NCBI RefSeq assembly: GCF_030406605.1
Contig: NZ_CP129104.1
Coordinates: 880,072-944,071 of the forward strand
Length of the DNA: 64,000 nucleotides
Reading direction: 5' to 3'
Source of the DNA: Curtobacterium sp. 458
GTDB taxonomy: Bacteria; Actinomycetota; Actinomycetes; Actinomycetales; Microbacteriaceae
Every line of letters begins with the position of its first letter. The stretch's first letter is position 1. Positions 1,562 to 62,494 of the stretch are shown piece after piece. The translations under genes were made by a program, and so were the position numbers. The notes below the pieces were generated by a model. The model saw only the letters and a list, made by a program, of their open reading frames with translations. It ran no database searches and was not told where the DNA came from.

Positions 1562-1573
1562 CGGGAGGCACGG
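1562..1573 (+). repeat. copy 1 of recurrent intergenic 12-mer CGGGAGGCACGG
   Basis: This exact 12-mer directly follows the stop codon of the RibD_C gene. The same 12-mer occurs between genes at 39942-39953, 51886-51897 and 57532-57543, and on the other strand at 47566-47577. None of the five lies in a coding region. Function unknown. Confidence 0.6.
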
Positions 1574-1775
1574 GTCGCGTGACGCGCGCACGGCCCGCGG
1601 GCAGGGCCCCGGGACAGGTCGTCGGTCACGCGACGTGCGCGCGGAACGTGCGCCGGGCCTCCAGTCGGAGGGGTCGCGTCACGCGACGTGCGCACGGAAC
1701 GTGCGCAGGGCCTTCCGGCGGAGGGTCGCGTCACGCGACGTGCGCACGGAACGTGCGCAGGGCCTCCAGGCGGTC
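1573..1775. repeat. tandem repeat of about 52-53 bp derived from the 3' end of the phosphatase gene
   Basis: TCACGCGACG recurs at 1626, 1679 and 1731 (periods 53 and 52), each followed by TGCGC, a GGAACGTGCGC-like stretch and GGGCC. A degenerate fourth copy can be traced at about 1573-1610. The copy at 1731 is the real 3' end of the minus-strand phosphatase gene, including its TGA. The other copies lie downstream of that stop and each re-encodes a FRAHVA-stop-like end. Confidence 0.75.
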
Positions 1776-9165: not shown

Positions 9166-9235
9166 ACGAAACGCGCGCGTCCCGACGTCCCGCGCGTCGA
9201 TCGACACGTGCGTCGTCGAAACGCGCGCGTTTCGT
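9166..9235. repeat. 70-bp inverted-repeat element, copy 1
   Basis: It begins ACGAAACGCGCGCGT and ends ACGCGCGCGTTTCGT, which are inverted repeats of each other. The middle holds the palindrome GTCGATCGA(C). Two further copies of exactly the same length lie at 39852-39921 and 62425-62494. All three are between genes. This copy separates the MOSC gene from the epimerase gene. No coding potential. Confidence 0.85.
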
Positions 9236-10261: not shown

Positions 10262-10303
10262 GGACGGGAGGCCCGTGGCGGCGCCGCCACGGGCCTCCCG
10301 TCC
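10262..10303. terminator. 42-bp perfect palindrome, bidirectional terminator
   Basis: The left arm GGACGGGAGGCCCGTGGCGG (continuing one base) is followed directly by its full reverse complement, ending GGGCCTCCCGTCC: two 21-bp arms with no loop. It sits between the epimerase gene (plus) and the His-rich gene (minus), which converge. GACGGGAGGC recurs in other terminators of this window. Confidence 0.75.
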
Positions 10304-34915: not shown

Positions 34916-34972
34916 ACGGGACGGACGGGAGGCTCGTGGCCGGCCCGCGCCCGAGCCTCCCGTCCGTCCCGT
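34916..34972. terminator. long hairpin terminator after the permease gene
   Basis: The left arm begins ACGGGACGGACGGGAGGCTC and the right arm ends GAGCCTCCCGTCCGTCCCGT; 21 perfect base pairs enclose a 15-base loop (34937-34951). It shares GACGGGAGGC with the palindrome at 10262-10303 and the hairpin at 62364-62410. Confidence 0.75.
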
Positions 34973-39851: not shown

Positions 39852-39921
39852 GCGAAACGCGCGCGTTCCGACATCGCGCGCGTCGATCGACGGGTGCAAC
39901 GTCGAAGCGCGCGCGTTTCGT
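39852..39921. repeat. 70-bp inverted-repeat element, copy 2
   Basis: Begins GCGAAACGCGCGCGTTCC and ends GCGCGCGTTTCGT, with GTCGATCGAC in the middle. Same length and order as copies at 9166-9235 and 62425-62494. It lies between nucS and the HAD gene, 26 bases after the nucS stop. Confidence 0.85.
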
Positions 39922-44966: not shown

Positions 44967-44983
44967 GGTCGGTCCTCTCGTGG

Positions 44984-45082
44984 GGTGCGGGGCCGGCCGG
45001 CGCGCGTCGGTCGGGTGGTGCGGGGCTGGCCGGCCAGCGTCGGTCGGGTGGTGCGGGGCCGGCCGGCCCCCGTCGGTCGGAC
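44984..45082. repeat. 33-bp tandem repeat, three copies
   Basis: GGTGCGGGGC-GGCCGG... repeats start at 44984, 45017 and 45050, an exact period of 33 bp, with a few substitutions per copy (CGTCGGTCGG is constant). It fills the gap between the NmrA gene start and the kinase gene stop on the minus strand. The period is a multiple of three, so the reading frame through it stays open. Confidence 0.75.
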
Positions 45083-45084
45083 GG

Positions 45085-45726
45085 TCACGTCCGGACCGTC
45101 CTGGAGGCACGGCTCACCGTTGCAGCGACCCGTGCGGCGTTCACGCCGTCCACCTCCACCGCCCACGCGCGCGCTGCGTCGTGGTCGCGCCCGTGCCGCA
45201 TGTGGCGACCGACCAGGCGGTCGACGCGGACCGCGTCGTCGACGACGCAGGCCCACGTCTCGGTGAGGAGCTCCGGCAGCGCGGTCCACGGCGCCTCGGT
45301 GTCGAGGAGGTAGTTCCCCTCGGTCACCACGAGTCGGGTCGCACGCGGGACGGCGATGCTGCCCGCGACGGGTTCGTCGATCCGGCGGTCGAAGTCCGGG
45401 GCCCAGACGACCGGTTCGTCCGCGGTCGCCAGTCGACGGGCGAGCGCGACGTACCCGGCGGCGTCGAAGGTGTCGACCGCTCCCTTGCGGTCGTGCCGGC
45501 CGAGGGCGTCGAGCGCCGCGTTCGCCAGGTGGAACCCGTCCATCGGCACCTGCACGGCCGTCCCCGCGCCGAGCCGTTCGTCGACCGCGGTCACGATGCG
45601 TCGGGCGAGCGTGGACTTCCCCGCGCCCGGAGCGCCGGCGATGCCGAGGACCACCCGGTCCGCGCCCCGTGCCAGTTCCACGGCTCGCTCGACGGCCTCG
45701 TCGACGGACATCTCCTGCTGCGGCAC
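45085..45726 (-). CDS. P-loop nucleoside/nucleotide kinase family protein
   Basis: 213 residues from GTG at 45726 (VPQQEMSVDEAV). Walker A is GIAGAPGAGKSTLARR near residue 35. VPMDGFHLANAALDALGRHDRKGAVDTFDAAGY is the uridine kinase/pantothenate kinase-like substrate region (PMDGFH), and RLVVTEGNYLLDTE the Walker B-like strand. Relatives are often annotated as fructose transport or uridine kinase-like; substrate unknown. ATG at 45711 is possible but has poorly placed ribosome-binding sequence. Divergent from the VOC gene by 37 bases. Confidence 0.83.
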   Translation of the reverse strand: MPQQEMSVDEAVERAVELARGADRVVLGIAGAPGAGKSTLARRIVTAVDERLGAGTAVQVPMDGFHLANAALDALGRHDRKGAVDTFDAAGYVALARRLATADEPVVWAPDFDRRIDEPVAGSIAVPRATRLVVTEGNYLLDTEAPWTALPELLTETWACVVDDAVRVDRLVGRHMRHGRDHDAARAWAVEVDGVNAARVAATVSRASRTVRT

Positions 45727-62424: not shown

Positions 62425-62494
62425 ACGAAACGCGCGCGTTCCGACATCGCACCGGTCGATCGACGGGTGCCACGTCGGAACGCGCGCGTTTCGT
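62425..62494. repeat. 70-bp inverted-repeat element, copy 3
   Basis: Perfect 18-bp terminal inverted repeats ACGAAACGCGCGCGTTCC / GGAACGCGCGCGTTTCGT, with GGTCGATCGACGGG in the middle. It ends 9 bases before the manganese catalase stop. Copies 1 and 2 are at 9166-9235 and 39852-39921. Confidence 0.88.

What the first reader, a model, noticed from the sequence alone, without database searches (positions are those of the whole stretch)
9166..9235. Three copies of an exactly 70-bp intergenic inverted-repeat element (also 39852-39921 and 62425-62494)
The three elements have the same length, the same 17-18-bp terminal inverted repeats (ACGAAACGCGCGCGTTCC type) and the same central GTCGATCGAC palindrome, while the spacers between vary a little. 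All are between genes: after MOSC, after nucS and before the manganese catalase stop. Fixed length with drifting inner bases fits a mobile MITE-like or REP/BIME-like element, or a site bound by a chromosome-organising protein. I do not recognise it as a described family. Mobility is inference.
Basis: partly seen in the sequence, partly recalled or inferred. Interest (0 to 1): 0.78.

Follow-up and report, generated by a model that had tools for sequence, protein, structure and literature searches.

The report
Genus-wide palindromic repeats at gene ends
The three 70-base palindromes belong to a large family of short DNA signs, which I have not found described, that sit behind genes in most Curtobacterium genomes looked at, keep four tiny words at fixed distances while the letters between drift, and may mark places where an unknown protein acts.

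Summary
In detail: three 70-bp inverted-repeat elements, and about 30 related sites in this 3.68-Mb Curtobacterium genome. Each is a capped form of a 36-bp dyad with the grammar CGAC-N9-GTCG-NN-CGAC-N9-GTCG. Exact matches: 61 in this genome, 1-108 in 57 of 66 Curtobacterium genomes, 1-3 in 27 of 292 other Microbacteriaceae genomes. Two interior families exist (centre GTCGATCGAC or GTCGTACGAC); dyads are often doubled at 71-73 bp. Of 31 own sites 18 are convergent, 12 co-directional, 1 divergent. In 19 orthologous dyad comparisons boxes changed at 5 of 304 positions, interiors at 69 of 342, and arm pairing is mostly not kept: the boxes, more than the fold, look selected. No target-site duplication in 18 monomers; no Y1/RAYT transposase in 66 genomes. 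Still, elements come and go: element 3 is absent from 28 of 28 other usable genomes, and another convergent gap holds different families in different species. Best reading: REP/BIME-like DNA sites at transcription-unit ends, read by an unknown protein and spread by an unknown agent. Selfish elements and RNA terminators remain strong rivals. Eight literature searches found no description.

The parts
9166..9235 (.). Element 1 (cap-dyad-cap), between MOSC-domain gene and epimerase-family gene, co-directional
9167..9184 (.). left 18-bp palindromic cap of element 1
9183..9218 (.). 36-bp CGAC-N9-GTCG-NN-CGAC-N9-GTCG dyad of element 1 (exact boxes)
9217..9234 (.). right cap of element 1
39852..39921 (.). 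Element 2, 26 bp after the nucS stop, before a HAD hydrolase gene, co-directional
39853..39870 (.). left cap of element 2
39869..39904 (.). 36-bp dyad of element 2 (exact boxes)
39903..39920 (.). right cap of element 2
62425..62494 (.). Element 3, convergent gap, 8 bp beyond the Mn-catalase stop
62426..62443 (.). left cap of element 3
62442..62477 (.). 36-bp dyad of element 3 (exact boxes)
62476..62493 (.). right cap of element 3

Best explanation
The 70-mers are a capped form, found in part of the genus, of a Curtobacterium-wide family of modular palindromic repeats. SHOWN: a 36-bp dyad with four boxes (CGAC, GTCG, CGAC, GTCG) at fixed spacing, often doubled at 71-73 bp, sits behind stop codons, in this genome mostly between convergent genes; boxes differ far less between orthologous copies than interiors; gaps gain, lose and exchange elements. 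INFERRED: the boxes are read as double-stranded DNA by a sequence-specific dimeric or tetrameric protein acting where transcription units end (on topology, termination or insulation between facing genes), as is held for BIMEs (recalled). Elements are now and then copied into new 3'-end gaps by an unidentified agent that leaves no target-site duplication, and are kept where the site is useful.
For: Grammar: 61 exact dyads in the own genome, 57 of 66 Curtobacterium genomes with 1-108, reversed-pattern control 0 in all 66; 27 of 292 genomes of other Microbacteriaceae with 1-3, control 1 genome; 18 of 395 other genomes of the phylum draw with one each, control 3 genomes. Box constraint: 5 of 304 box versus 69 of 342 interior substitutions in 19 hand-picked one-to-one orthologous pairs from 15 own dyads, p 2.5e-15; 3 compensated pair changes against 19 one-sided breaks. 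Own arms covary at most marginally. Place: 18 of 31 own sites convergent versus 5 of 87 element-free gaps of at least 70 bp (p 4.5e-9), 1 of 31 divergent versus 32 of 87; 11 of 12 co-directional sites nearer the upstream stop. Spacing 71-73 bp over differing spacers, with exceptions of 65 and 80 bp. One convergent gap: dyads in 10 of 26 usable genomes, own included, of different families.
Against: No binding protein was found. The orthologous loci were fetched because a model of the element matched there, and partners were chosen by identity, so box conservation is partly a matter of ascertainment. 11 of 74 second-family dyads are perfect palindromes and pooled data show excess arm pairing, also in the first family (61.5% versus 56.3%, p 0.00075); own dyads have somewhat more two-sided changes than shuffles (33 versus 24.1, reached by 15 of 500). 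Nine of 66 genomes have no exact dyad, so the site is dispensable. Element 3 looks like a recent gain. Placement behind genes can also come from tolerance; in other genomes it is weaker (20 of 32 co-directional nearer the stop).
Confidence: 0.42

Rival explanations
1. Selfish non-autonomous elements (MITE-like) with no host function, moved by an unidentified enzyme; boxes are its recognition sites and the gene-end location is the place where insertions are tolerated.
For: Cap type found in part of the genus; element 3 absent from the orthologous gap in 28 of 28 other usable genomes at up to 1 box mismatch, with 93-95% identical flanks in G004, so most simply a gain here; element 1 present in G031 but absent in G027 and G053; one gap holding different families in different species; some own copies 93-94% alike.
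Against: No target-site duplication in 18 monomers; no Y1 transposase in 66 genomes; no recurring neighbour gene among 166 predicted proteins. Orthologous copies keep their boxes (with the ascertainment caveat), which dead insertions should lose. Own 70-mers are in the median 81% alike, within the 64-90% range of 8 orthologous comparisons, so there was no recent burst.
Confidence: 0.28
2. Bidirectional transcription terminators or 3'-UTR stabilisers acting as RNA hairpins without a U-tract, for both genes of a convergent pair.
For: Very stable hairpins: the three window elements fold at -47.8, -49.9 and -57.0 kcal/mol, z -4.9 to -8.5; behind stop codons, in this genome mostly convergent; excess arm pairing in pooled data, above all in the second family.
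Against: Within the own genome pairing hardly exceeds shuffles (82.4% versus 81.4%; 84.7% versus 85.2% in the 17 monomers). Orthologous changes break pairing 19 times and compensate 3 times while box letters stay. Several gaps also hold a separate GCCTCCCGTCC-type hairpin (by eye).
Confidence: 0.25
3. Ordinary or chance: GC-rich palindromes expected in a high-GC genome, or ordinary terminators shared by descent.
For: High GC and many GC-rich hairpins at gene ends in the genus. With 3 box mismatches allowed the grammar does match by chance (10 of 29 loci), so only near-exact matches count.
Against: 0 in 100 shuffles; reversed-pattern control 0 in all 66 Curtobacterium genomes; near absence in other genera.
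Confidence: 0.02

Closest known systems
REP sequences / BIMEs (GTAG- and CGTC-tagged families; PMC3733652: abstract, outline, the sections 'CGTC families' and 'Genome distribution of REP sequences' read)
   Same: Short palindromic intergenic repeats, mostly between convergent or unidirectional genes and close to 3' ends, often in dimers, diverse sequence.
   Different: No GTAG or CGTC tag; outer boxes are CGAC/GTCG; four-box grammar with 71-73 bp doubling; no Y1/RAYT gene in 66 genomes. A word search of that main text for actinobacter-, Curtobacterium, Clavibacter, Leifsonia, Streptomyces, mycobacteri- gave 0.
REPINs (PMC3116915, seen in the search listing only)
   Same: Small mobile units of paired short repeats (detail recalled).
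   Different: REPINs depend on RAYTs (recalled); no Y1 transposase here.
MITEs
   Same: Small, non-coding, terminal inverted repeats, patchy presence, gaps without the element in relatives.
   Different: No target-site duplication, no parent transposon found, many positions shared across species with conserved boxes.
Macrodomain or partition sites such as matS or parS (recalled, no call)
   Same: Short dyads dispersed over the chromosome.
   Different: Recalled consensus sequences differ; here placement follows gene ends, and the own sites examined run from 0.2 to 3.35 Mb of the record.

Membership tests
REP (GTAG/CGTC superfamilies) | 20-40 bp palindromic unit, many copies, intergenic | tested here: met
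   36-bp dyads, 61 exact in own genome; 0 of 31 own sites inside a predicted gene; 3 of 73 clusters in other genomes inside ORF calls
REP (GTAG/CGTC superfamilies) | GTAG or CGTC tetranucleotide at one end | tested here: not met
   outer tetranucleotides are CGAC (40 of 40 left) and GTCG (38 of 40 right) in the dyad alignment; definition from PMC3733652
REP (GTAG superfamily) | RAYT / Y1 transposase in the genome | tested here: not met
   PF01797 in 0 of 66 genomes; the control genomes rang in 5 of 14. CGTC REPs lack a dedicated transposase according to PMC3733652, so this bears on GTAG REPs only
REP/BIME | placement between convergent or unidirectional genes near 3' ends | tested here: met
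   18 convergent, 12 co-directional, 1 divergent of 31; 11 of 12 co-directional nearer the stop
BIME | bound by gyrase, IHF or Pol I (recalled) | not testable with these tools
   needs a binding assay
MITE | terminal inverted repeats, no coding capacity | tested here: met
MITE | target-site duplication | tested here: not met
   0 of 18 monomers with an exact flanking repeat of 3 to 9 bp, five boundary placements tried
MITE | related autonomous transposon | tested here: inconclusive
   no recurring gene in the own loci around the sites; whole genome not screened for all transposases
MITE | empty orthologous sites | tested here: met
   element 3: absent in 28 of 28 other usable genomes at up to 1 box mismatch, flanks 93-95% identical in G004; another gap: none in 16 of 26. 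Gain is inferred by parsimony, not on a genome tree
Intrinsic terminator | stable GC-rich hairpin | tested here: met
Intrinsic terminator | U-tract behind the hairpin | tested here: not met
   no T-run on either side of the three elements, by eye; U-less terminators are claimed for Actinobacteria (recalled)

The most novel reading that the evidence does not exclude
Curtobacterium carries a genus-specific four-box DNA code at the ends of transcription units, read by an undescribed sequence-specific protein whose recognition has split into at least two dialects (centres GTCGATCGAC and GTCGTACGAC), so that the same gap between facing genes is filled with one dialect in one species and the other in its neighbour.
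Probability: 0.3. Interest if true: 0.75.

Novelty: new variant of a known kind. Interest (0 to 1): 0.58.

Why it matters
It shows a REP/BIME-like system in high-GC Gram-positive bacteria without the Y1 enzyme held to spread GTAG REPs, with a fixed grammar and a measurable contrast between conserved boxes and drifting interiors. That makes an old question testable: do such repeats have a host function, or are they parasites tolerated behind genes? The genus offers rich, poor and element-free species for comparison.

Tried and rejected
Chance or simple GC-rich palindromes: rejected by shuffles and the reversed-pattern control. RAYT mobilisation: rejected for Y1 enzymes. Known RNA family: Rfam gave 0 matches at gathering thresholds on 12 own loci of 73,312 bases. 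Carriage by phages or plasmids: no match to element 3 in either collection. Hairpin selection by covariation: at most marginal in own dyads, none in the 17 monomers, partial in pooled data. A gene travelling with the elements: 166 predicted proteins in 29 own loci gave only scattered paralogues by BLASTP; no Pfam screen of them was made. The 1.8-kb stretch beside an element in G027 holds ordinary regulator- and transporter-like genes, judged by eye. Element-free genomes as one lineage: 5 of the 9 zero-count genomes were in the 30-row catalase tree and fall in one clade with support 100/100, but a genome with 65 dyads (G041) also falls inside it on that single gene. Literature: words and literal motifs, 8 searches, no description found among the listed papers; most subscription papers and preprints are not held.

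Limits: genes were called with my own codon-usage caller, trained on 31 window ORFs. The 31 own sites are a hand-curated list of first-family elements from BLAST and pattern hits, not all of the 61 exact dyads; weak BLAST hits were left out, and second-family sites are not in the placement count. One of the 18 monomers was dropped from the model and from one pair count because of an indel; one of 41 dyads was left out of the other. The pooled pairing test used 115 dyads from 8 genomes, from lists that the tool cuts (22 of 25 listed for G015, dropping two overlapping dyads and one duplicate). The relatives' loci were fetched because they hold elements, so occupancy is biased upwards; 34 own sites were tried, 18 had a usable gap. 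The first orthologue count (box 20 of 608, interior 189 of 684) included pairs that were not one-to-one; the 19 were picked by hand from it. One search used 30 loci although 62 of 66 genomes matched. Background for other genomes' placement: 49 convergent of 178 gaps, element gaps included, against 34 of 73 clusters.

Full report
OBSERVATION. Ends are 18-bp near-palindromes CGAAACGCGCGCGTTYCG ('caps') overlapping by 2 bp a 36-bp dyad centred on GTCGATCGAC. The cap-cap pattern is found at these three places only in the window and in none of 100 shuffles. Neighbours are MOSC / epimerase family, NucS / HAD hydrolase, and a small ORF without Pfam match facing Mn-catalase.

ORGANISM AND COPIES. The closest records are mostly named Curtobacterium; the window is 64 kb of a 3.68-Mb single-contig genome. 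BLAST and pattern searches led to a curated list of 31 own first-family sites. Eighteen are cap-dyad-cap monomers. Others are doubled: dyad, 35-36 bp spacer, dyad, with a cap at one end, both ends or neither, at 71 or 72 bp from start to start.

GRAMMAR. Aligned own dyads show nearly invariant CGAC and GTCG boxes with variable interiors. The pattern CGAC-N9-GTCG-NN-CGAC-N9-GTCG has 61 exact matches in this genome and 1 to 108 in 57 of 66 Curtobacterium genomes, median 39 over all 66; the reversed control has 0 in each of the 66. In the family draw, 27 of 292 genomes of other genera have 1-3, control 1 genome. In the phylum draw, 18 of 395 other genomes have one, control 3 genomes. One other-genus genome (G198) has three, two of which were fetched and are long perfect or near-perfect palindromes. 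Within Curtobacterium there is a second interior family with centre GTCGTACGAC, mostly doubled at 72-73 bp; single pairs at 65 and 80 bp were also seen. Spacers often hold two TGC-N4-GCA-like small palindromes (by eye). Caps are a subtype: exact or one-mismatch caps occur in 9 of 60 genomes drawn and are numerous here and, less so, in G004; more diverged caps were seen in G037 and G028.

PLACE. With a simple gene caller, 18 of 31 own sites are convergent, 12 co-directional, 1 divergent, none inside genes. Element-free gaps of at least 70 bp in the window and the fetched own loci are 5 convergent, 50 co-directional, 32 divergent of 87. Of the 12 co-directional sites, 11 are nearer the upstream stop than the downstream start. 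In other Curtobacterium genomes 73 element clusters gave 34 convergent, 32 co-directional, 3 divergent, 3 inside ORF calls, 1 at a locus edge, against 49 convergent of 178 gaps with element gaps included; of the 32 co-directional, 20 were nearer the stop, a weaker bias than here.

EVOLUTION. Of 34 own sites tried, 18 had a usable orthologous gap in the fetched relatives and 16 of these were occupied in at least one relative, sometimes by the other interior family (loci chosen because they hold elements). Element 1 is shared with G031 but no dyad with up to 1 box mismatch is in the gap of G027 or G053. Element 3: no dyad with up to 1 box mismatch within 300 bp before the catalase end in 28 of 28 other usable loci, with 93-95% identical flanks in G004; most simply a gain in this lineage. 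With up to 3 mismatches 10 of 29 other loci give hits, so that threshold is not informative. The nucS gap has no element in the nine closest of the 80 loci; C. luteum keeps a short stretch resembling an element end. A convergent pair next to own site 3155840 is conserved across the genus: of 30 loci, 26 usable, 10 have dyads, own included and each with at least one at 0 or 1 box mismatch (capped first family here; second-family arrays in G004, G053, G031; second family in G002, G011, G057; uncapped first family in G006, G010, G003; family by eye), and 16 have none, one of them (G008) with a truncated remnant seen by eye. So the same slot is filled by different families in different species.

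WHAT IS CONSTRAINED. In 19 one-to-one orthologous dyad pairs from 15 own dyads, box positions changed at 5 of 304 and interiors at 69 of 342 (p 2.5e-15). Changes broke arm pairing 19 times and compensated 3 times. The caveat is ascertainment: the loci were found with a model of the element. Own dyads show little covariation beyond shuffles: 82.4% paired versus 81.4% (68 of 500 shuffles reach it), but two-sided changes 33 versus 24.1 (15 of 500); the 17 monomers show none. In pooled genus data the second family pairs more than shuffled arms (60.0% versus 48.8%) and the first a little more (61.5% versus 56.3%, own dyads included); the second family mixes perfect palindromes (11 of 74) with unmatched arms. 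I read this as selection mainly on the boxes, with palindromes arising or being restored now and then; a role of the fold is not excluded. Hairpins are strong when folded as RNA.

MOBILITY. No target-site duplication, no Y1 transposase in 66 genomes, no recurring neighbour gene, no phage or plasmid match, no recent burst: own 70-mers are at most 94% and in the median 81% alike. How they spread is unknown, but element 3 and the slot at 3155840 show that they do.

VERDICT. A real, genus-wide, REP/BIME-like repeat system with its own grammar, failing the REP tag and RAYT tests and the MITE duplication test. Function as a protein-read DNA site at transcription-unit ends is my best inference, not shown. 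I found no published description in the eight searches made; of papers I read the abstract and two sections of PMC3733652 and saw the others as listings only.

Noticed in passing
window 7113, 10262-10303, 34923-34965, 62397: A separate GCCTCCCGTCC/GGACGGGAGGC hairpin family (6 exact 11-mers, 0.36 expected), also seen by eye before the catalase end in many Curtobacterium genomes; probably the ordinary terminators.
   Followed up: partly
L086, gap behind nucS: A different palindromic array built on GCCGTTTCGCGCGTAGG sits in the same gap in strain PS02333, so the slot behind nucS is used by another repeat family there.
   Followed up: no
own genome, second-family dyads near 206044, 488544, 746785: Second-family dyad pairs at 73-bp spacing coexist with the first family in this genome.
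   Followed up: partly
G198 C1:1856278 and 2419259 (L272, L271): Another Microbacteriaceae genus has a few long palindromes (about 60 bp) with a dyad core of the second-family kind.
   Followed up: no
window 1567-1773: Four near-tandem copies of a 51-bp repeat, 69-96% identical to the reference copy.
   Followed up: no
window 44978-45085: Three 42-nt direct repeats at 33-bp spacing.
   Followed up: no
L084 6001-6868: The NucS match in C. luteum JCM 1480 spans 868 instead of 693 bases, with an N-terminal part matched twice: a local duplication or assembly error.
   Followed up: no
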